Shown here one piece after another: positions 5,937 through 32,178 of a stretch of 34,298 nt of DNA (position 1 is its first letter; each line of letters begins with the position of its first letter). Below the pieces are notes generated by a model. That model saw only the letters and a program-made list of their open reading frames with translations, ran no database searches and had not been told where the DNA came from. A program made the position numbers and the translations under genes. Source of the stretch: Candidatus Bathyarchaeota archaeon BA1 (GTDB lineage Archaea; Thermoproteota; Bathyarchaeia; Bathyarchaeales; Bathyarchaeaceae); the NCBI GenBank assembly GCA_001399805.1, contig LIHJ01000085.1:1-34298 (forward strand), given 5' to 3'.

Positions 5937-5991
5937 CCGTTAGAACCTCCAAATACAGCGGTACTCATACCCACCTGAATATTGATATAAA

Positions 5992-6000
5992 CTTTTATAC
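5992..6000 (+). promoter_or_regulatory. Box A promoter of the SRP RNA gene
   Basis: CTTTTATAC, a TATA box centred about 28 nt before the predicted first base of the SRP RNA at 6024. The spacing is that expected for an archaeal promoter. Confidence 0.6.
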
Positions 6001-6252
6001 ATTGGAATGAATTCAGTTTATTTGGCGGCGGGCCTCAGGCGGGGGGATAGGGGTCCCCTGAGAGGCACCACGTGCCTCGACCGTAAACCCCCTACACGAC
6101 GGGCCGAAAGCTGAGGTGAGGCGTCAAAGATCGTCAGGCCCTTCAGCCTCTAAACCGTGAGCATCCGTCCCCTGGGGCTGGCGGTCGCGGGGTGGCTTCC
6201 GTAGGGAAGCCGACCACCACGTCTACCAGGCGAACCTGGCCAGGCCCGGGAG

Positions 6253-7099
6253 ATGGGGTGCGGAGAAAATAGGAATGGAAAGTGGTCTATTGCCTAACTG
6301 GTTGCCGATGCTTGCAGTACGTCAGGGGAGTCCAGCAAAGGCTGTGGTAGCTGGGCGTAGGTATGTGTTAGCAGATTTATCCCCCGAGTTGCTTGAAAAA
6401 TTGTATGCCAGTGAAATAGAGTATTTCTATGTGCCAAGATCTCCAAAACGCGTGAGATTGCCGCGTTCTGTTACAACGAGCCTTGCGTATCTTGTGGGCT
6501 ATCACTTGGGCGATGGCTATCTAGAAGATATTGACAAAACAATTCGTAGGAAAGGCAGGCCAGACTACGAAATCGGCTATTCGGACAAAAGCAGAGAAAT
6601 GTTACGATTGGTACTAATGCCAATTTTTCAGAGACTTTTCGGCGTATCGCTACTTGTATCGAAGAAAAAGGGTGAAAACATGTACGTCGCACGATTATAT
6701 TCAAAAATCGTCTACATCTTTCTTCAGGCTGTACTTGGGCTTCCAAATGGAAAAAAGCCATCAGGGGGCATTCCGTCTCATGTCCAACATGATGAAAAAC
6801 TGCTGAAATATTTTCTACGAGGTTTCTTCGATGCTGAGGGATACGCATACTTTGATACATGGAACAGAAAACCAAGGGTAGGTATAACGAACTCTAATAA
6901 GGCGTTATTATATGAAATTAAGGCTCTACTCCGAAAAGGTTTCCACATACCTATGATGGGACCCTACAAAAAACACAGACAAGACTGCTGGGAACTAAAA
7001 TTATTCGAAGAAGGCGCAATTCAAGAGTTCGTGACTAATATAGGCTCTAGCCATCCTGAAAAGAAGAATAAGTTAGAATCTCTCTACACCCCACCTGAA
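6253..7099 (+). mobile_element. BHB intron in SRP RNA helix 8, encoding a homing endonuclease
   Basis: 847-nt intron predicted from a near-canonical bulge-helix-bulge. The central helix is CGGG (6247-6250) with CCTG (7094-7097). The bulges are AGA (6251-6253) and AAG (7098-7100). The inner helix is TGGGGTG (6254-6260) with CACCCCA (7087-7093), continuing as GGAGA/TCTCT. Cutting between the second and third bulge bases rejoins the SRP54-binding hairpin at exactly the length of the conserved core. The outer helix is weak in the unspliced form. The intron is unusually AT-rich inside a GC-rich RNA gene and holds a LAGLIDADG gene, as in archaeal rRNA homing introns. Confidence 0.85.
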
Positions 7100-7111
7100 G
7101 GAGCAACCTAA
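6275..7111 (+). CDS. LAGLIDADG homing endonuclease of the SRP RNA intron
   Basis: 278-residue two-motif LAGLIDADG protein. Motif 1 is LAYLVGYHLGDGYL at about residues 70-83 and motif 2 is LKYFLRGFFDAEGYA at about 177-191; each ends in the acidic residue needed for DNA cleavage. Such enzymes cut an intronless copy of their host gene so that the intron is copied in. The ATG at 6275 is just inside the intron. The last three codons and the stop TAA (7100-7111) lie in the downstream SRP exon, so splicing the RNA removes the true end of the ORF. No frameshift is seen, so it appears intact. Confidence 0.87.
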   Translation: MESGLLPNWLPMLAVRQGSPAKAVVAGRRYVLADLSPELLEKLYASEIEYFYVPRSPKRVRLPRSVTTSLAYLVGYHLGDGYLEDIDKTIRRKGRPDYEIGYSDKSREMLRLVLMPIFQRLFGVSLLVSKKKGENMYVARLYSKIVYIFLQAVLGLPNGKKPSGGIPSHVQHDEKLLKYFLRGFFDAEGYAYFDTWNRKPRVGITNSNKALLYEIKALLRKGFHIPMMGPYKKHRQDCWELKLFEEGAIQEFVTNIGSSHPEKKNKLESLYTPPEGAT

Positions 7112-7209
7112 GCTTGGGCGTTCAGCGCTCAGGGGGGTGCGGGTGTGAGTAAGGGGGTTGGGGGGCTTGGCGAACCACTGGGCGTCGAGCCTCGGTGACC
7201 CGCCGCCTA

Positions 7210-12541: not shown

Positions 12542-15500
12542 ATGGGGCAAAGGCTAATGCAAACGAGATTTTGGCTGTTGGACGTGAATTATGAGGTGAA
12601 GGAGCATCAGCCAGAGATGTGGATCTGGGGCATCGATGACGGGGGGAAGCGGGTTCTCATTATTGACCGCAACTTCCTTTGTTATTTTTATCTTGTGGTT
12701 GAGGATGGGGAGAATCCTCAGGTTGTGGTGGAAAGGATCAAATCCAGCGAGGCGGAGTTTCCATTTATCGTCAGGTTGGAGCCCATGGAGCTAAGGTTTT
12801 TTGGAAAGCCAACAAAGGTGATTAGGGTTGTTTGTCAAGACCCCGATCTCATACCAAAATATGCTAAGGGGGTTGGAAAAATTAAGGGGGTGAAGGATTG
12901 TCTTGAGGGTGATATCCGCTATTCCATGCGCTATCTCATTGATAACAATGTCAGTCCATGCGGCTGGCATGAGATAGAGGTTGAAGAAATAAAAAACGAA
13001 CTGGGGGTTCATGTCGATAAAGTATACCTGGCAAAATCTTTTCCTAAAGGTATCGAAAAAACAGAGGTACCGCGGTTAAGGATTTTGGGCTTTTCCATGA
13101 TTTGCCACAGCCCCAAGGGCGCGCCTAAACCCGAGAGAAACCCTGTGGTGGTCATCTCAGTCGCCACTAATGCGGGTGATGAAATACAGTTTTTAACGGA
13201 GAATTCTAATGATAAACCAGTCATAGAGTCATTCATAAAATATGTCAAGAACTTTGATCCCGACATCATCGTGGGCTATGGAACCAATCAACAAGACTGG
13301 CCCTATCTAGTCACTCGCTCCAAAAAGTTGGGCATCCACCTATTTATGGACCGGGCCAATACTGAGCCTCACACAAGCGTGTATGGTCACGTTTCAATTA
13401 CAGGACGAGCCAACATCGACTTTTTCGACTTCGCGGAAGACCTTCCCGGAGTGAAGGTGAAGACCTTAGAGAATGTAGCCGACTTCCTCGATGTTATGAA
13501 AATCGAAAAGCGCACTCTTATTGAGGACATAGACTTCCCCACCTACTGGGACGATCCTGAAAAGCGCCCAGCGCTGCTGAGGTTCTCCAAAGAAAATACT
13601 CAATGCATCATGGGGATAACCGACGCTATGCTGGACTTTGCCATGCAGCTGTCCAACATGGTCGGCCTGCCCCTAGACCATGTTGGAACTGCCGCTGTGG
13701 GCTTCCGGGTTGAGTGGTTCCTGATTCGAGAAGCCTACAAGATCGGCGAGCTGGTTCCCAAGAGAATTGAGCGCCCCTACATCCCATACGTGGGAGCCGT
13801 GGTCCTTGAACCCAAACCAGGAATTCACGAAAACATAGCGGTGCTCGATTTCAAGTCAGTTGATTACGATGAGCCAATAGTTTTAATGGATGATAACAAT
13901 AATCTATACTTAACTAAAATTGGAGAGTTTATTGACAAGCATGCTGGCTCATTAATGAAAATAAGCGATGAATGTGAAGTAGCTGAATTAAATTGTTGGA
14001 AAGTGCTATCTTTCGATGAGAATCTTAACGTTTGTTTAAATCCCATACGTCAATTCTCCCGGCATCGCTACAATGGAAAGCTGCTAAAAATAACAACAAA
14101 AACTGGGAGGGAGGTTAAAGTAACACCTAACCACAGCCTTTTCACATTAAGTAATCGCCTTAAGCCGATTCCCCTAAAGGCTAGTGACGTAAATAAAGGA
14201 AGTTTCATTGTCATTCCAAGGAGCGTAAAGCTCCCAATGGTGTATCAGGAACATGTGAGTCTTCTAAAGTTAATGAGGGGTCTCAATAAAGATCAGTTAA
14301 GTGACATATATTTCTACCGTAAATTTCCGAAAGGATATTGGAATTGGATAAAGGCAAAAGTATTAATCCTTGATGCCATAAGCTCAGGGGCTAATTCAAC
14401 AAGAAAGGCGGCCATCATAATTGGGCATAGGCATTGTAATATTTATCGACACATCTATGACTTGCATAAACACAAGCTAATCATATGGGATAAGGGGAGA
14501 GGTAATCTACAAATCACTAAATTAGGGAAGGAGTTTCTTCAACGAGAAAAATTATTGCTTAGGCTTCGTGAATACGTTCCATGGCGACGTTGTTATAGAT
14601 TCAGATTATCGGATGCACTTGATGTCTTAGAGAATGTTGACAGTCAATACTTAAAAAATTGGAAGATTGGTTTTAAGCGAACCCGGGAACAGCATTTGAT
14701 TGATGTCATATTACCAACTAAAACCTTAGCAACATTACTTGGGTATTATGTGGCAGAGGGATGCACATCTAAATCAGCTAGGAAGGAAAGAGCAGGTCAA
14801 TATCAGTATAAAGTACATTTCACCGCTGCAGATATAGTAAAAGAGATGAAAGAAGTGGCCGAAGCATTGGGATTTCACTCCTCTGCGATGAAGGGAACAG
14901 GGTTTAATAAGGGAGAAGTTGAAGAGGGCTTCTCTTTATCTTCTCAACTGCATTATTTTCTATTTGATGTATTGTTAAACGCTGGTAGGTGCGCCCGTGA
15001 GAAAAGAGTCCCGCCTATAGTTTTTTTGTTTGACGAAGTTGCTCGGCGCTCCTTTGTCGAGGCGTACTTAAAGGGCGATGGACACCTACGAAGCGACGGC
15101 GTATATATATTTGGATCTATGAGTGATAAGCTAATTCAAGGTATGTCCCTTCTTCTTATGAGCATGAGAAAACTAGGAGTCACCCTCTGGAAAGACGCTA
15201 AGTCAAATATGAATTTTGCTTGGATAAATGATTACTATAACAAGGCTGAAAAACATACGCATCTAACTCGTCAAATCCCGGTTAATTTTATCCCAAAGAC
15301 CTACCCAAGAAGCCAGCTTCCTCGCAAAATAATGGAAAAAGCCCAAATACGAACCATTTCACGAACAAAGCTTCTTCGCTGGGCAGAGAAAAACTATCCT
15401 GAACTCATCACCTTTTTTAAAAGTGACTTAACCTTAGATTATGTTGTTAAAATTGAAGAGGCGAATCCCACAACCGAATTTGTATATGACATCGGCGTGA

Positions 15501-18373
15501 ATCCAACGCAAAACTTTGTCTGTGGACACTGTTGGATATGCGCTCACAATAGTTTATACCCCAACATCATGATTTCCCAAAATGTTTCACCCGACACCTA
15601 CGTTTCACCCACTGAGCCGGAGCCACCATGCGGCGTGAACACAGCACCAGAGGTGAAACACAGGTTCCGCACAGAACCCTCCGGCTTCTACAAAGAGGTG
15701 CTATCCCACCTCATAATGGTTCGAGACGAGATCAGACCCAAGCTAAAGATGCTGGAGCCGCAAAGCGTGGAATATAGGGTTCTCGACGCTCGCCAAAAAG
15801 CAGTGAAAGTCATCACAAACGCATGTCTAGATTATGACACGCCCATTATTATAAGGCGAAATGGAAACATTTCCGTGGTTCGCATCGGCGAATTTATTGA
15901 TACCATGGTTAAAACTAATGATCCTGTGATTTGTGAAGATTTTAGTGAGTTTGTTAAACCGACCGAAAATCTTGAGACGCTTTCTTTTGATCCCATTACT
16001 TGGGAGGTGATGTGGAGGCGAGTTTTTCAATGTGTTCGCCATCGTCTAAATCACGAAATGTTAGAAATAGAATTAAAATCGGGCGCCAGCATTCGGGTTA
16101 CCCCTGAACATAAAATGTATGTACTTGATGAAGAGGGTGAATTAACAATTAAAAAAGCAGCAGACATTCATTGTGGCGAATGGTTGCCTCTTTTATCTCA
16201 AATGCCCTCATCCAAAAGGTATACGCAGCCTCAACTTAATCTATTGCGTTATCTTGTTAGGATTGAGCCTAAAAGAACAGAGAACATCATGGTGATTATC
16301 CAACATCCATATAGCAAAAAAACTAGGATTAATTATGAGGCGTGGTGTAGAATATTAGCAGCTCTGAAAGGCAAACCTTCAGGATGTATTAAGGAGATAG
16401 CACATCACGCTAACTATGGAAACCCGAAATCCGTATCGAAACACCTCATAAATCTTAAAAAGATGGGTTTTGTTGAGAGGGCTCCTTACATTGGAAGGGA
16501 ACGGAAGAAAGTGTTCAGAATAACTCCCAGCGGAGAGAATTTATATGACGCTCTTTCCGCCTTCTCTGAAAAGATTTTACGTGACCCCAATGGCCGACGC
16601 CACTATGTATGGTTTAACGATATTAGAGAGGTTGTCGAAAAACTACCCTTAAGTATAATTCACTCATGGTTGGTGAAATTATATAAGTCACGGGATGAAC
16701 TTCCCGTAATCATAACTGCTGTAGGCAAGGTAGCACGTCTAGTTGGGTATTATGTCTCTGATGGTACTTCCGATGAATTTAAGAATAAGACGGGAGGTAC
16801 TTCGAGAAGAATCATCTGGTGCAATTCAAATCCGAGGATCAGAGAAGACATTATTCACTGTTTTAACGAAGCATTTGGGCCTCATTTAAATGTAAGCCCA
16901 CGTCAAATTACTGCTAACTCAGGTTTAATATACATTATCTTCATAGATTTATTAAAAACTGGCAAACGTGTATATAGAAAAGCCGTCCCAGATTTCATAA
17001 TCAACGGGCCAAACAAATTGAAATGGGAATTTCTCCGTGCCTATGATTCAGGGGATGGCAATAAAACTCTCCCCTACACACGTTGGACGACAGTTAACTT
17101 TCATTTGCAAAACCAGCTAATCTTGTTAATGAAGCAACTTGGGGTTCAAGGGGGTTCCATCAGAAGAGACTGTGGCGCTCACAGAGTTCTGGTACATGAC
17201 TCGTTGCCCTCCAGAAGGGAGTATAGAGTTGGTCATCGAATGCATCAAAGTTTTATTATCCCTAGGAGCGTTGCTCTTCCATTGCTTAGAGAGACGAAAT
17301 CAAATTGCGATTATTTACGTTGGTCTGACTCAAACATTTCTAAAGCGCAAATAAAACGTATATTAAACGACGCAAAAAATGGAAAGGCTGTTGCCACTGA
17401 TCAACTCAGCAATTTAATCGCCAATAAGCTCTACTTTGAGCAGATAGCGAAAATTCGTAAAGTTGAACAACGTAGCCCATACATTTACGACATTACCATT
17501 GAAGCGCCACATACGCTATTTGCGGGCTTAGGCTTCATTGGTGTCTCCAATTGTTACGGCTACGCAGGTTGGTTGGGGGCGCGTTGGTACGTCAAGCCTG
17601 TTGCTGAGGCTACTACGGCTTGGGGTCGAAATGCCATCTTAAACACCATAGAATTGGCGAAGGAAATTGGATTGGAGGTTGTGTATGGCGACACAGACAG
17701 CATCTTCATCGAGCATGAACCTGATAAAATTGAGAAAATATCTGAGGAGATTAGTAAGACACTCGGGTTGGAGATTAAGCCTGATAAGGTATATCGCCGT
17801 GTTTTATTTACTGAGGCTAAGAAGCGGTATTGTGGGCTTTTGCCGGATGGCCGATTAGACATTGTGGGTTTGGAGGTGATACGGGGGGACTGGGCTGCTG
17901 TCGCTAAAAATGTGCAGGAGACGGTACTAAACATTATTCTTAAGGAGCTGTCGCCGGAGAAGGCTGCGGGGTTCGTGCGTCAATATGTTTCGGATTTAAG
18001 GGAAAAGAAGGTGCCGTATCGAGACCTCATCATATGGAAGACCCTGACAAAACCCTTAGAAGAGTACGCTGTGAGGGCTCCGCATGTGGAGGCTGCACGC
18101 ATGCTGTTGAGGGGGGGCTGGGACCTATCCATGGGCGACAAGATCGGTTATGTCATTGTTGCTGGTCCCGGTCGATTATACGAGAAGGCGAGGCCCCACG
18201 TCTTAGCCTCCTATGATGAGGTCGATATTGAATACTACGTTTCAAATCAGGTGGTGCCAGCCGTTTCCCGAATTCTATCCATGTTTGGTGTAGCTGAGGA
18301 TGAGTTGCTGGCTCCTACAACACCTACCCTCCATAAATTTGGAGGGTTAGCCCTGAATATCCGCAAACGTTAA
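12542..18373 (+). CDS. polB: Family B DNA polymerase precursor with two inteins
   Basis: 1943-residue precursor; removing the inteins (565 and 576 aa) leaves an 802-aa PolB. The polymerase motifs are intact: motif A D-F-K | S-L-Y-P-N-I (split by intein 1), motif B K-x-I-T-N-A | C-Y-G-Y (split by intein 2), and motif C YGDTDS at about residue 1715. The exonuclease domain is odd: Exo I, normally DIE, reads GFSMICH; Exo III, normally Y-x3-D, reads FSKEN; Exo II keeps only one Asp (TNQQDW). Proofreading is therefore probably lost. ATG 12542 is used, with ATG 12557 possible; the body begins FWLLDVNYEV. The 3' end overlaps dnaG by 27 nt, tail to tail. Confidence 0.93.
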   Translation: MGQRLMQTRFWLLDVNYEVKEHQPEMWIWGIDDGGKRVLIIDRNFLCYFYLVVEDGENPQVVVERIKSSEAEFPFIVRLEPMELRFFGKPTKVIRVVCQDPDLIPKYAKGVGKIKGVKDCLEGDIRYSMRYLIDNNVSPCGWHEIEVEEIKNELGVHVDKVYLAKSFPKGIEKTEVPRLRILGFSMICHSPKGAPKPERNPVVVISVATNAGDEIQFLTENSNDKPVIESFIKYVKNFDPDIIVGYGTNQQDWPYLVTRSKKLGIHLFMDRANTEPHTSVYGHVSITGRANIDFFDFAEDLPGVKVKTLENVADFLDVMKIEKRTLIEDIDFPTYWDDPEKRPALLRFSKENTQCIMGITDAMLDFAMQLSNMVGLPLDHVGTAAVGFRVEWFLIREAYKIGELVPKRIERPYIPYVGAVVLEPKPGIHENIAVLDFKSVDYDEPIVLMDDNNNLYLTKIGEFIDKHAGSLMKISDECEVAELNCWKVLSFDENLNVCLNPIRQFSRHRYNGKLLKITTKTGREVKVTPNHSLFTLSNRLKPIPLKASDVNKGSFIVIPRSVKLPMVYQEHVSLLKLMRGLNKDQLSDIYFYRKFPKGYWNWIKAKVLILDAISSGANSTRKAAIIIGHRHCNIYRHIYDLHKHKLIIWDKGRGNLQITKLGKEFLQREKLLLRLREYVPWRRCYRFRLSDALDVLENVDSQYLKNWKIGFKRTREQHLIDVILPTKTLATLLGYYVAEGCTSKSARKERAGQYQYKVHFTAADIVKEMKEVAEALGFHSSAMKGTGFNKGEVEEGFSLSSQLHYFLFDVLLNAGRCAREKRVPPIVFLFDEVARRSFVEAYLKGDGHLRSDGVYIFGSMSDKLIQGMSLLLMSMRKLGVTLWKDAKSNMNFAWINDYYNKAEKHTHLTRQIPVNFIPKTYPRSQLPRKIMEKAQIRTISRTKLLRWAEKNYPELITFFKSDLTLDYVVKIEEANPTTEFVYDIGVNPTQNFVCGHCWICAHNSLYPNIMISQNVSPDTYVSPTEPEPPCGVNTAPEVKHRFRTEPSGFYKEVLSHLIMVRDEIRPKLKMLEPQSVEYRVLDARQKAVKVITNACLDYDTPIIIRRNGNISVVRIGEFIDTMVKTNDPVICEDFSEFVKPTENLETLSFDPITWEVMWRRVFQCVRHRLNHEMLEIELKSGASIRVTPEHKMYVLDEEGELTIKKAADIHCGEWLPLLSQMPSSKRYTQPQLNLLRYLVRIEPKRTENIMVIIQHPYSKKTRINYEAWCRILAALKGKPSGCIKEIAHHANYGNPKSVSKHLINLKKMGFVERAPYIGRERKKVFRITPSGENLYDALSAFSEKILRDPNGRRHYVWFNDIREVVEKLPLSIIHSWLVKLYKSRDELPVIITAVGKVARLVGYYVSDGTSDEFKNKTGGTSRRIIWCNSNPRIREDIIHCFNEAFGPHLNVSPRQITANSGLIYIIFIDLLKTGKRVYRKAVPDFIINGPNKLKWEFLRAYDSGDGNKTLPYTRWTTVNFHLQNQLILLMKQLGVQGGSIRRDCGAHRVLVHDSLPSRREYRVGHRMHQSFIIPRSVALPLLRETKSNCDYLRWSDSNISKAQIKRILNDAKNGKAVATDQLSNLIANKLYFEQIAKIRKVEQRSPYIYDITIEAPHTLFAGLGFIGVSNCYGYAGWLGARWYVKPVAEATTAWGRNAILNTIELAKEIGLEVVYGDTDSIFIEHEPDKIEKISEEISKTLGLEIKPDKVYRRVLFTEAKKRYCGLLPDGRLDIVGLEVIRGDWAAVAKNVQETVLNIILKELSPEKAAGFVRQYVSDLREKKVPYRDLIIWKTLTKPLEEYAVRAPHVEAARMLLRGGWDLSMGDKIGYVIVAGPGRLYEKARPHVLASYDEVDIEYYVSNQVVPAVSRILSMFGVAEDELLAPTTPTLHKFGGLALNIRKR
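13856..15550 (+). mobile_element. Intein 1 of PolB (motif A site), LAGLIDADG with winged helix
   Basis: 565-residue in-frame intein inserted in polymerase motif A between D-F-K and S-L-Y-P. It begins with Ser (SVDYDEPIVLMDD), has splicing block B as VTPNHSLFT, block F as TEFVYDIGVNPTQNF, and ends CWICAHN before the +1 Ser, the canonical His-Asn. The homing endonuclease part has LLGYYVAEG (about residue 733 of the precursor) and AYLKGDGHL (about 840), both with acidic ends. Before it, at about 613-666, a stretch with IIIGHRHCNIYRHIYDLHKH and LQITKLGKEFL looks like a winged helix-turn-helix. All parts appear intact. Confidence 0.92.
15824..17551 (+). mobile_element. Intein 2 of PolB (motif B site), LAGLIDADG with winged helix
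   Basis: 576-residue in-frame intein inserted in polymerase motif B between K-V-I-T-N-A and C-Y-G-Y. It begins CLDYDTPIIIRRNGN, has block B as VTPEHKMYV, block F as SPYIYDITIEAPHTLFAG, and ends GFIGVSN before the +1 Cys. The penultimate residue is Ser, not the usual His, an uncommon but tolerated variant. The endonuclease motifs are LVGYYVSDG (about 1400) and AYDSGDGN (about 1500). A winged-helix-like domain at about 1270-1330 (SGCIKEIAHHANYGNPKSVS, then KKMGFVERAPYI) parallels that of intein 1, so the two may be related. Confidence 0.92.
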
Positions 18374-27767: not shown

Positions 27768-28037
27768 TTGCCAGTTAGTACTGTTAGTAAAAAGGGTTTG
27801 ACCACTATTCCCAGCGAAGTAAGAGGTGCTTTAAAGATAAAAAAGGGGGACATGCTGGAATGGAAAATCGTCAAGGCTCACAATGAATTTATACTCCAAG
27901 TGAGGTTGATACCAAATCCATATGACTTCCTGAAAGGCAGGCGCAAAGACCCTGAGCTAACCTATGAAAAAATTGAGGATTTAGCGGACAAACTGATATT
28001 TGGGGAGTTAGGCGAGGAGAGGCATGCCAGTCATTGA
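27768..28037 (+). CDS. vapB: AbrB-family antitoxin (VapB-like)
   Basis: 89-residue antitoxin with an N-terminal SpoVT/AbrB swapped-hairpin DNA-binding domain: STVSKKGLTTIPSEVRGALK, then KKGDMLEWKI. The C-terminal part (about 50-89, with YDFLKGRRKDPELTYEKIED) would wrap around and block the toxin. It starts at TTG 27768; an AT-rich box (AGATATATTC, about 27740-27749) lies about 25 nt upstream, so it may be nearly leaderless. It overlaps vapC by 14 nt, the classic coupling. Such pairs repress their own promoter. Confidence 0.85.
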   Translation: MPVSTVSKKGLTTIPSEVRGALKIKKGDMLEWKIVKAHNEFILQVRLIPNPYDFLKGRRKDPELTYEKIEDLADKLIFGELGEERHASH

Positions 28038-28434
28038 GCTTGATATGCTTATAGCCTTTGTAAACCCGCTGGATAAGCATCACGCCATAACCAGCAACTT
28101 ATTCATGAAGATCAGGGATAGGCAAATAAAGAATGTTTCCACCACTGCGTCAGCCTACTTAGAATATCAGCTTATTCATAAAGCGCGAGGGTATGGAGAA
28201 AGTGAGATAAGAAGAGACCTCGAAATGTTCAGGGTATTCCCAAACCTCGGCGAAAGAAATCTTTCCTTAAACATATTAATCAAGGCTTCAGAGCTCAGAG
28301 ATAAATATGGCTTATCCTTTTTTGACTCCCTGCATGCAGCAACGGCGATGCTAACAGACCAAAAGGTCATATCTAGTAACCAAACGTATGATCGTATCGC
28401 GGGGCTGGTTAGATTAGATCCTCAAAGACTTTAA
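28024..28434 (+). CDS. vapC: VapC-like PIN-domain ribonuclease toxin
   Basis: 136-residue PIN-domain protein, the toxin partner of the upstream antitoxin. It opens MPVIELDMLIAFVNPLDKHH with the first acidic residue at D7. It has the second acidic position near the YLEYQL segment and the third in GLSFFDSLHAATAM. The usual fourth acidic residue, in an ISxD-like strand, appears as SSNQTYD, with Asn in its place, so activity may be reduced or use the nearby Asp. The target is probably tRNA or rRNA, by analogy. It sits immediately after a decayed vapBC pair, so one system may have replaced another. Confidence 0.85.
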   Translation: MPVIELDMLIAFVNPLDKHHAITSNLFMKIRDRQIKNVSTTASAYLEYQLIHKARGYGESEIRRDLEMFRVFPNLGERNLSLNILIKASELRDKYGLSFFDSLHAATAMLTDQKVISSNQTYDRIAGLVRLDPQRL

Positions 28435-31703: not shown

Positions 31704-31863
31704 GGGCTGCCAGCTTTCCCGGCTTCGCGTGGCCGAGGACCACACTAACACCGGGAACGGAGCGCGGTTTAACTTCCGAGCTACCGATAAGAGGCGTCAC
31801 TTTCATGCGCCCTCATTTTCGGAACGGGATCGGGTGGGTCCCGCGCCCTATGGCCGGCAACCC
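31704..31863 (-). rRNA. rrf: 5S ribosomal RNA with a 37-nt insertion
   Basis: 5S rRNA on the minus strand. The terminal helix pairs GGGTTGCC at the 5' end (31856-31863) with GGCAGCCC at the 3' end (31704-31711). Conserved segments include GATCCCGTTCCGAA and CTCGGAAGTTAAACCGCG. The gene is 160 nt; the usual length is about 120-125. The excess is a 37-nt segment (31781-31817) in loop C; without it the RNA would be 123 nt. The rRNA genes are unlinked in this window. A weak TATA-like sequence lies near 31893. Confidence 0.93.
31781..31817 (-). other. Insertion in 5S rRNA loop C (intron or expansion)
   Basis: Read on the minus strand, the insertion sits between CCGAA and CTCGG, a conserved stretch that is normally continuous. 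It folds into a hairpin: GAGG(G)CG with CGCCTC. Its 3' part contains TCGG, which can pair with the exon CCGA, mimicking the normal CCGA/TCGG helix III. A bulge-helix-bulge can be drawn but is imperfect, and the canonical cut would leave two extra bases. It may therefore be a relaxed intron or a retained expansion, as known for Halococcus 5S RNA. Confidence 0.75.
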
Positions 31864-31928: not shown

Positions 31929-32070
31929 AAAACATGCGAAGTGTTGAGTGATGGGGCCGTAGTCTAGGCATGGCTTCGGCAACACCGAGCCGCTGGAGAG
32001 GTATGACGACAATTAGCATGACAACATGCTAACCGTTAGGGGCTCCAGAATAGAGGCACACGGGTTTGCG

Positions 32071-32109
32071 GACCAAGAGCTGGGATGAAGAGCTTCTGGA
32101 GCGTGAGAA
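32071..32109 (+). other. Predicted anticodon-loop intron (37/38) of the tRNA
   Basis: 39-nt segment. The proposed BHB has central helix TTTG (32065-32068) with TGAG (32104-32107), mostly wobble pairs, and bulges CGG (32069-32071) and AAA (32108-32110). The central strand TGAG and the bulge CGG are the same as in the tRNA-Val intron of this window. Inside, CCAAGAGCT pairs with AGCTTCTGG (one mismatch) around a 9-nt loop. It occupies the canonical intron position. Confidence 0.55.
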
Positions 32110-32115
32110 ACCCGT

Positions 32116-32143
32116 AGGAACAGCATGACGCTGTTCTGGGTAG
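32116..32143 (+). other. Predicted variable-region intron of the tRNA
   Basis: 28-nt segment with a clean BHB: central helix ACCC (32110-32113) with GGGT (32138-32141), bulges GTA (32114-32116) and AGA (32142-32144), and inner helix GAACAGC (32118-32124) with GCTGTTC (32130-32136). The canonical cut joins CCCGT to AGGTC, the same variable-region sequence as in tRNA-Val here. An intron at this non-canonical place, together with others, is known mainly from Thermoproteales-type archaea. Confidence 0.65.
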
Positions 32144-32163
32144 AGGTCGTCGGTTCGAATCCG

Positions 32164-32178
32164 GCCGGCCCCATCAAA
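32164..32178 (+). repeat. Direct repeat, left copy (tRNA 3' end)
   Basis: GCCGGCCCCATCAAA, the 3' end of the tRNA plus five bases. It recurs at 33061-33075 with one difference (14 of 15 bases the same). tRNA 3' ends are the usual attachment sites of archaeal integrating elements. Confidence 0.5.

What the first reader, a model, noticed from the sequence alone, without database searches (positions are those of the whole stretch)
6024..7207. SRP RNA gene interrupted by a homing intron spliced at a BHB motif
The SRP RNA ends pair perfectly, but the SRP54-binding hairpin is split by 847 nt. A near-canonical bulge-helix-bulge (CGGG/CCTG, bulges AGA and AAG) sits at the borders, and the predicted cut restores a helix 8 cap that aligns base for base with the conserved core. 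The intron carries an intact two-motif LAGLIDADG protein. Archaeal BHB introns are known in tRNA, rRNA and a few mRNAs, and BHB processing of a permuted SRP RNA is known in Thermoproteus. I am not aware of an SRP RNA invaded by an endonuclease-bearing intron. It would be a new host site at one of the most conserved RNA elements.
Basis: partly seen in the sequence, partly recalled or inferred. Interest (0 to 1): 0.95.

Follow-up and report, generated by a model that had tools for sequence, protein, structure and literature searches.

The report
Homing intron splits archaeal SRP RNA
In a probable Bathyarchaeia archaeon, the gene for the universal protein-targeting RNA (SRP RNA) is split in its most conserved stretch by an 847-base insert that carries a gene of the LAGLIDADG homing-endonuclease family and is predicted to be spliced out, likely at the same bond where the archaeon Thermoproteus seals its circular SRP RNA.

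Summary
Confirmed and sharpened. The SRP RNA gene (6024-7207) is cut by exactly 847 nt (6253-7099). Nine of nine related Bathyarchaeota genomes carry an uninterrupted SRP RNA with the joined sequence CCGGGAG^GGAGCAACCTAAG. Rfam's model maps exon 1 to positions 1-210 and exon 2 to 211-317. The joined RNA keeps 98 of 104 pairs predicted from the homologues. The insert's ends form a canonical bulge-helix-bulge whose cuts equal the comparative borders. The insert encodes an intact, I-DmoI-like two-motif LAGLIDADG protein.

New here: the junction is the bond inferred for the permuted, circular SRP RNA of Thermoproteus-type genomes, whose describers proposed an ancestor with 'simple BHB introns'. 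Six related endonucleases end in EGAT or ERAT, as if their frames also ran into SRP exon 2, so the element probably recurs at this site.

Splicing in the cell, endonuclease activity and absence of a second SRP RNA gene are not shown. The paper searches gave no report of an endonuclease-bearing SRP RNA intron. New variant of a known kind.

The parts
5990..5999 (+). TATA-like promoter element (AACTTTTATA) 34 nt before the SRP RNA start
   Evidence: A like motif (AA[C/G]TTT(T)A[T/A]) stands 32-35 nt before the start in all nine relatives; promoter function is inferred
6024..6252 (+). SRP RNA exon 1 (5' Alu domain, helix 5 strand, helix 6, 5' strand of helix 8)
   Evidence: RF01857 model positions 1-210; alignment with nine intronless homologues
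6247..6253 (+). BHB 5' side: central helix CGGG and bulge AG|A; predicted cut 6252/6253
   Evidence: border equals that set by relatives
6253..7099 (+). 847-nt predicted BHB intron
   Evidence: absent from nine of nine homologues; no Rfam family at gathering score and no intron family up to E 10
6254..6260 (+). intron helix, 5' strand UGGGGUG
6275..7111 (+). LAGLIDADG endonuclease-family ORF, 278 aa; motifs VGYHLGDGY and RGFFDAEGY (motif boundaries recalled); ends 12 nt inside exon 2
   Evidence: PF14528 E 4.6e-10; AlphaFold2 pLDDT 91.2, pTM 0.90; Foldseek I-DmoI
7087..7093 (+). intron helix, 3' strand CACCCCA
7094..7100 (+). BHB 3' side: CCUG and bulge AA|G; predicted cut 7099/7100
   Evidence: border equals that set by relatives
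7100..7207 (+). SRP RNA exon 2 (3' strand of helix 8 to the 3' end)
   Evidence: RF01857 model positions 211-317

Best explanation
The SRP RNA gene of this probable Bathyarchaeia archaeon is interrupted at the tip of helix 8 by an 847-nt insert (6253-7099) that carries an ORF of the LAGLIDADG homing-endonuclease family and is predicted to be removed as a bulge-helix-bulge intron. Inferred mechanism: the gene is transcribed whole from its own TATA promoter; the tRNA splicing endonuclease cuts both bulges (AG|A and AA|G); RtcB joins the exons and restores CCCGGGAG^GGAGCAACC, the SRP54-binding cap of helix 8. Before splicing the precursor would serve as mRNA for the endonuclease, whose frame ends at a TAA supplied by SRP exon 2. 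The endonuclease would cut intronless SRP RNA genes in the 20-nt stretch around the insertion bond, and repair from the intron-bearing copy would spread the intron. Shown: anatomy, exact borders, empty sites, intact RNA pairing and intact ORF. Inferred: splicing, cleavage, homing.
For: Halves of the Rfam model abut at 210/211. Nine of nine relatives have the joined 20-mer CCGGGAGGGAGCAACCTAAG and the window does not have it contiguous; it is the longest invariant run of the ten-sequence alignment, next 9 nt. Joined RNA keeps 98 of 104 pairs (homologues 95-101) and 69 of 70 exon 1-exon 2 pairs. BHB with exact cut sites, 5e-6 by chance. Intact ORF, LAGLIDADG family, confident I-DmoI-like model. 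EndA family in 8 of 9 and RtcB in 6 of 9 relatives. The same junction is used by permuted Thermoproteus-type SRP RNA, where ligation by RNA-Seq and cleavage of the BHB by the splicing endonuclease in vitro are published (PMC4731332). Related proteins P0001-P0005 and P0007 end as expected for the same exon 2.
Against: No RNA data. No whole genome, so a second SRP RNA gene cannot be excluded. Six consensus pairs are broken in the joined RNA (homologues 3 to 8). RtcB was not found in 3 and EndA not in 1 of 9 relatives, which may be incomplete. No second intron-bearing SRP RNA could be read as DNA; the genome scans found no close endonuclease and no other intron. P0006, of the same protein clade, does not end in SRP exon 2.
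Confidence: 0.9

Rival explanations
1. Dead copy: an endonuclease gene landed in one SRP RNA gene copy that is no longer used, and an intact second copy serves the cell.
For: No whole genome is held, so a second gene is not excluded. In one search eight of the class genomes listed on screen from the strong end, and some weaker ones, gave two or three matches, of unchecked nature.
Against: One SRP RNA match in each of nine relatives. The exons keep structure as well as working homologues do (98 of 104 pairs), the promoter motif is kept, and the borders form an exact BHB, which a dead copy would not need.
Confidence: 0.05
2. Cut but not joined: the BHB is cleaved and the intron released, but the SRP RNA works as two pieces held together by pairing.
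For: Seventy consensus pairs link the exons, 69 of them kept, enough to hold two pieces.
Against: In T. tenax the ends at this bond are ligated, and an open S-domain bound SRP19 and SRP54 with significantly reduced affinity (PMC4731332). RtcB family found in 6 of 9 relatives.
Confidence: 0.03
3. Assembly accident, or another intron class (group I) rather than a BHB intron.
For: The window is probably a metagenome record. Group I introns with LAGLIDADG genes occur in archaeal rRNA (PMC6125680, passages).
Against: A protein differing at one of 278 residues and also ending EGAT comes from a 40,475-nt contig (P0001). No Rfam family reached its gathering score in the insert and no intron family was among the three matches up to E 10. 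The BHB fits exactly.
Confidence: 0.02

Closest known systems
Archaeal BHB introns of rRNA genes with LAGLIDADG endonucleases (16S introns of Thermoproteales, PMC4496867, passages; I-DmoI of a 23S rRNA intron, host gene recalled)
   Same: BHB at the borders, two-motif LAGLIDADG ORF, insertion in a highly conserved stretch of a structured RNA gene, intronless alleles in relatives
   Different: Host gene is SRP RNA; the ORF's last codons and stop are read from the 3' exon; only distant sequence similarity to I-DmoI (profile E 4e-5)
Permuted circular SRP RNA of Thermoproteus (Plagens et al. 2015, PMC4731332)
   Same: BHB processing at the tip of SRP helix 8, at what the sequences show as the same bond GGGAG^GGAGCA
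   Different: There the gene halves are swapped, the RNA is circular and helix 1 is missing; no intron and no endonuclease gene is described. Here the gene order is normal and the ends pair in helix 1
BHB introns outside rRNA and tRNA: cbf5 mRNA and the 5' UTR of HVO_1309 (PMC7714728, passages)
   Same: Splicing endonuclease substrates in other genes
   Different: mRNA hosts; no endonuclease gene is mentioned in the passages seen
Archaeal group I introns (PMC6125680, passages)
   Same: LAGLIDADG genes in introns of structured RNA genes
   Different: Self-splicing core, not detected here; all 39 of theirs are in rRNA genes

Membership tests
Archaeal BHB intron | 4-bp central helix flanked by 3-nt bulges on opposite strands at the exon-intron borders | tested here: met
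   cut positions equal the borders set by relatives
Archaeal BHB intron | Removal by EndA and ligation by RtcB | not testable with these tools
   Only the presence of the enzyme families in relatives was tested: 8 of 9 and 6 of 9
Homing intron | Intronless alleles at the same place in related genomes | tested here: met
   nine of nine homologues
Homing intron | Endonuclease cuts the intronless allele and promotes transfer | not testable with these tools
   needs an assay
LAGLIDADG endonuclease (monomeric, two motifs) | Two LAGLIDADG motifs with an acidic residue, and the fold | tested here: met
   D80 of GDG invariant in 13 of 13 relatives and in the 47-row alignment; second motif GFFDA invariant, E188 replaced by D in part of the relatives; model and Foldseek match to I-DmoI
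Archaeal SRP RNA (RF01857) | Score over the gathering cut-off (96.5 bits) | tested here: not met
   31.9 bits unspliced; halves 63.6 and 26.5 bits; the joined RNA could not be given to the tool
Archaeal SRP RNA (RF01857) | Conserved helix 8 core and consensus pairing after joining | tested here: met
   invariant 20-mer; 98 of 104 pairs
Permuted SRP RNA (Thermoproteus) | 3' half of the gene before the 5' half | tested here: not met
   exon order is normal
Group I intron | Catalytic RNA core | tested here: not met
   no intron family among Rfam matches to 6253-7099 up to E 10

The most novel reading that the evidence does not exclude
A lineage of LAGLIDADG endonucleases is specialised on the SRP54-binding site of SRP RNA genes, reads its last codons and stop from SRP exon 2, and has spread through several archaeal lineages. 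Invasion at this single bond made SRP RNA dependent on the tRNA splicing machinery, and a later rearrangement of such an intron-bearing gene gave the permuted, circular SRP RNA of Thermoproteus. The window holds the 'simple BHB intron' arrangement that Plagens et al. postulated as the ancestor.
Probability: 0.35. Interest if true: 0.92.

Novelty: new variant of a known kind. Interest (0 to 1): 0.83.

Why it matters
SRP RNA is among the few RNAs used by nearly all cells, and helix 8 is its most conserved part. A homing intron there would add SRP RNA to the short list of archaeal BHB-intron hosts and would make the protein-targeting particle depend on the tRNA splicing machinery. Because the insertion bond equals the inferred sealing bond of Thermoproteus circular SRP RNA, it makes a published but untested idea testable: that the permuted gene descends from an intron-bearing one. 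It also shows how annotation can miss SRP RNA: the unspliced gene scores 31.9 bits against a cut-off of 96.5.

Tried and rejected
1) Other SRP RNA introns in genomes. RF01857 over 256 genomes of the class: 214 match, 202 over the cut-off. Over 398 of the phylum: 368 match, 325 over. The two sets overlap, and both scans used stricter filters that lose weak matches. Of those below the cut-off I re-scanned 27 of 54 and 22 of 73; the rest were not looked at again. From I read four of nine loci (L027-L030): runs of N, a contig end or collapsed hairpins, not introns. From I looked at 12 of 22 loci: L084, L086, L088 and L089 are permuted; L081 and L082 show an uninterrupted helix 8 site, while the GGAGCA pattern did not occur in the middle part of L083, whose model match is full length (1-317 in 318 bases); L085 ends at a contig end; L087, L095, L097 and L101 showed no permuted pattern. 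L085 and L028 break off at a contig end inside helix 8, cause unknown.

2) The endonuclease in genomes: 7 of 256 class genomes at E 1e-8, best 31% identity; 38 of 398 phylum genomes at 1e-10 with the profile, best 76.9 bits; 15 viral-contig loci at 24-34% identity. None is close.

3) Whether the whole clade of 50 proteins (177 bits or more, next 95 bits) sits in SRP RNA. A scan of N-termini for read-through of exon 1 was not significant (best 12 of 14, reached by 120 of 600 shuffled segments) and is dropped. The C-terminal test holds for P0001-P0005 and P0007 only. P0048 also scored 10 of 10, but away from its end; P0006, of the same clade, has no such end; P0010 and P0017 end in NAT (8 of 10) and do not fit.

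4) Group I intron: no sign.

5) Rfam on the 3' half of the permuted gene in L089 gave no SRP match, so its 5' end rests on the sequence and on the published lengths.

6) A covariance model of my own was not attempted, so the joined RNA has no model score.

Full report
What is there. The window is archaeal (16S rRNA at 1-1518). By the gene next to the SRP RNA its nearest named relatives are Candidatus Bathyarchaeota genomes, up to 79% protein identity (nine of ten loci; the tenth is a distant bacterial one), so the host is probably a Bathyarchaeia archaeon. No whole genome is held. The SRP RNA gene runs from 6024 to 7207 but is interrupted by 847 nt. Scored whole, Rfam's archaeal SRP model reaches 31.9 bits against a cut-off of 96.5. 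Scored apart, exon 1 (6026-6252) covers model positions 1-210 and exon 2 (7100-7205) covers 211-317: the halves abut exactly.

The borders are fixed by relatives. The nine Bathyarchaeota genomes have one SRP RNA match each, over the cut-off and over the full model. In seven of the nine loci the SRP RNA lies tail to tail with the same neighbour gene as in the window, within about half a kilobase; in the other two it lies elsewhere in the genome; tblastn found no trace of the endonuclease in the nine loci. All nine contain CCGGGAGGGAGCAACCTAAG, which is exon 1 joined to exon 2 at 6252^7100; the window does not contain it in one piece. Shifting the border by one base breaks the match. This 20-nt stretch is the longest invariant run in the ten-sequence alignment; the next longest has 9 nt.

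The RNA is not decayed. With a structure derived from the nine homologues alone, the joined window RNA keeps 98 of 104 pairs (homologues 95 to 101) and 69 of the 70 pairs that link exon 1 to exon 2. Against L016 it has two double compensatory changes, ten one-sided kept changes and six broken pairs; against L014 three, nine and five. A TATA-like motif stands 34 nt before the start in the window and 32-35 nt before it in all nine relatives.

The borders form a canonical BHB: central helix CGGG/CCUG, bulges AGA and AAG, and a 7-bp intron helix UGGGGUG/CACCCCA. The usual cut after the second bulge base on each strand (recalled rule) gives exactly the comparative borders. Random ends with the insert's dinucleotide transitions do as well at a rate of 5e-6 in 200,000 trials. 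The insert has no Rfam match at gathering score and no intron family among the three matches up to E 10. EndA-family genes (PF01974) were found in 8 of 9 relatives, two in six of them, and RtcB (PF01139) in 6 of 9; the genomes may be incomplete.

The insert's gene. ORF 6275-7111 encodes 278 aa with PF14528. The AlphaFold2 model from 47 sequences has mean pLDDT 91.2 and pTM 0.90. Foldseek's best matches are intein endonucleases and I-DmoI, the latter with target-normalised TM-scores of 0.71-0.77 in the rows listed; a profile search of PDB sequences also finds an intein endonuclease first and then I-DmoI (E 4e-5). The ORF runs 12 nt into exon 2, so its last residues G-A-T and its stop are SRP sequence (GGA GCA ACC TAA). 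In this form it can be translated only from unspliced RNA.

It probably recurs. The protein search gave 14 relatives and the profile search 73, with a clade of 50 at 177 bits or more and then a gap to 95 bits. In a tree of the window with 46 of these 50 (four short ones left out), the window and P0001-P0007 form one clade (support 0.934), with P0044 and P0045 as its sister; P0044 is named MSBL1 by its source. P0001, P0002, P0003 and P0007 end EGAT and P0004 and P0005 end ERAT, exactly where GGAGCAACCTAA or AGAGCAACCTAA would be read (10 of 10 and 9 of 10 motif bases); L030, a damaged SRP RNA locus, carries AGAGCAACC. In shuffled segments a 10 of 10 match anywhere was seen 7 times in 600. P0006 of the same clade lacks the ending. 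The DNA of these proteins could not be fetched, so the same site in other lineages is likely, not shown. P0001 differs from the window's protein at one residue of 278 and comes from a 40,475-nt contig, which speaks against an assembly accident.

The same bond as in Thermoproteus. Among phylum genomes with weak SRP matches, four (L084, L086, L088, L089) have the permuted arrangement: mature 5' end GGAGCACCC, 3' end GGUCCGGGAG, 309, 307, 307 and 309 nt. In L089 a 23-nt leader would start 21 nt after a TTAATA (counted on the output). Plagens et al. report for T. tenax a 309-nt RNA, a 23-nt leader, a TTAATA box 26 nt upstream of the start, identical ligation junctions at the tip of helix 8, and cleavage of the BHB substrate by the T. 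tenax splicing endonuclease in vitro (PMC4731332, parts 1 and 2 of 4 read). In L089 the last base of GGGAG maps to model position 210, as does the last base of exon 1 in the window; the other half of L089 gave no Rfam match. The junction GGGAG^GGAGCA is thus the same bond. [quoted passage not shown] The window has that arrangement, and its endonuclease offers a reason why this bond, in the most invariant DNA of the gene, was the one opened. Common descent of the two cases is not shown; the same bond could have been used twice.

How rare. Of 256 class genomes 202, and of 398 phylum genomes 325, have an SRP RNA over the cut-off. I found no other intron, but 27 class and 51 phylum genomes below the cut-off were not looked at again, and not every weak locus was read (see Tried and rejected).

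Is it in print? 'SRP RNA' with LAGLIDADG: no paper. 'Signal recognition particle RNA' with intron and homing endonuclease: one cyanobacterial paper, seen as a listing. SRP RNA with intron and BHB or permuted: 2, 8 and 4 papers, of which I opened only the Thermoproteus paper. Direct phrases such as 'SRP RNA intron': one algal paper, listing only. PMC7714728 (passages) names BHB motifs in tRNA and rRNA, the cbf5 mRNA and a new 5' UTR intron, and holds no mention of SRP. Most subscription papers and preprints are not held, so prior notice cannot be excluded.

Verdict. The observation and its reading stand. The kind is known (a BHB intron with a LAGLIDADG gene); the host gene and the shared junction are new as far as searched. 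Splicing, cutting and homing remain to be tested at the bench.

Noticed in passing
window 31705-31861 (-): The 5S rRNA gene has a 37-nt insertion between CCGAA and CTCGG compared with three relatives (L109, L110, L112). Its ends can pair in a BHB-like way, but the usual cut would not give the comparative border, so intron or permanent extension is open.
   Followed up: partly
window 31953-32176 (+): A tRNA-like gene: GGGGCCG...CGGCCCC ends and a T arm, hit weakly by the tmRNA model (17.3 bits) and not called by ARAGORN; it probably holds one or more large introns.
   Followed up: no
window 12542-18373 (+): A family B DNA polymerase gene of 1943 codons with intein splicing domains in two stretches.
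   Followed up: no
L085 and L028, contig ends: Two other genomes' SRP RNA genes break off at a contig end inside helix 8, close to the insertion bond; whether an insert lies beyond is unknown.
   Followed up: partly
L020, L022, L024: Loci with distant relatives of the endonuclease also hold a tRNA match nearby; whether these are tRNA introns was not examined.
   Followed up: no
window 27768-28434 (+): Two adjacent small ORFs that read like an AbrB-type antitoxin and a PIN-domain toxin; named by eye, not by a search.
   Followed up: no
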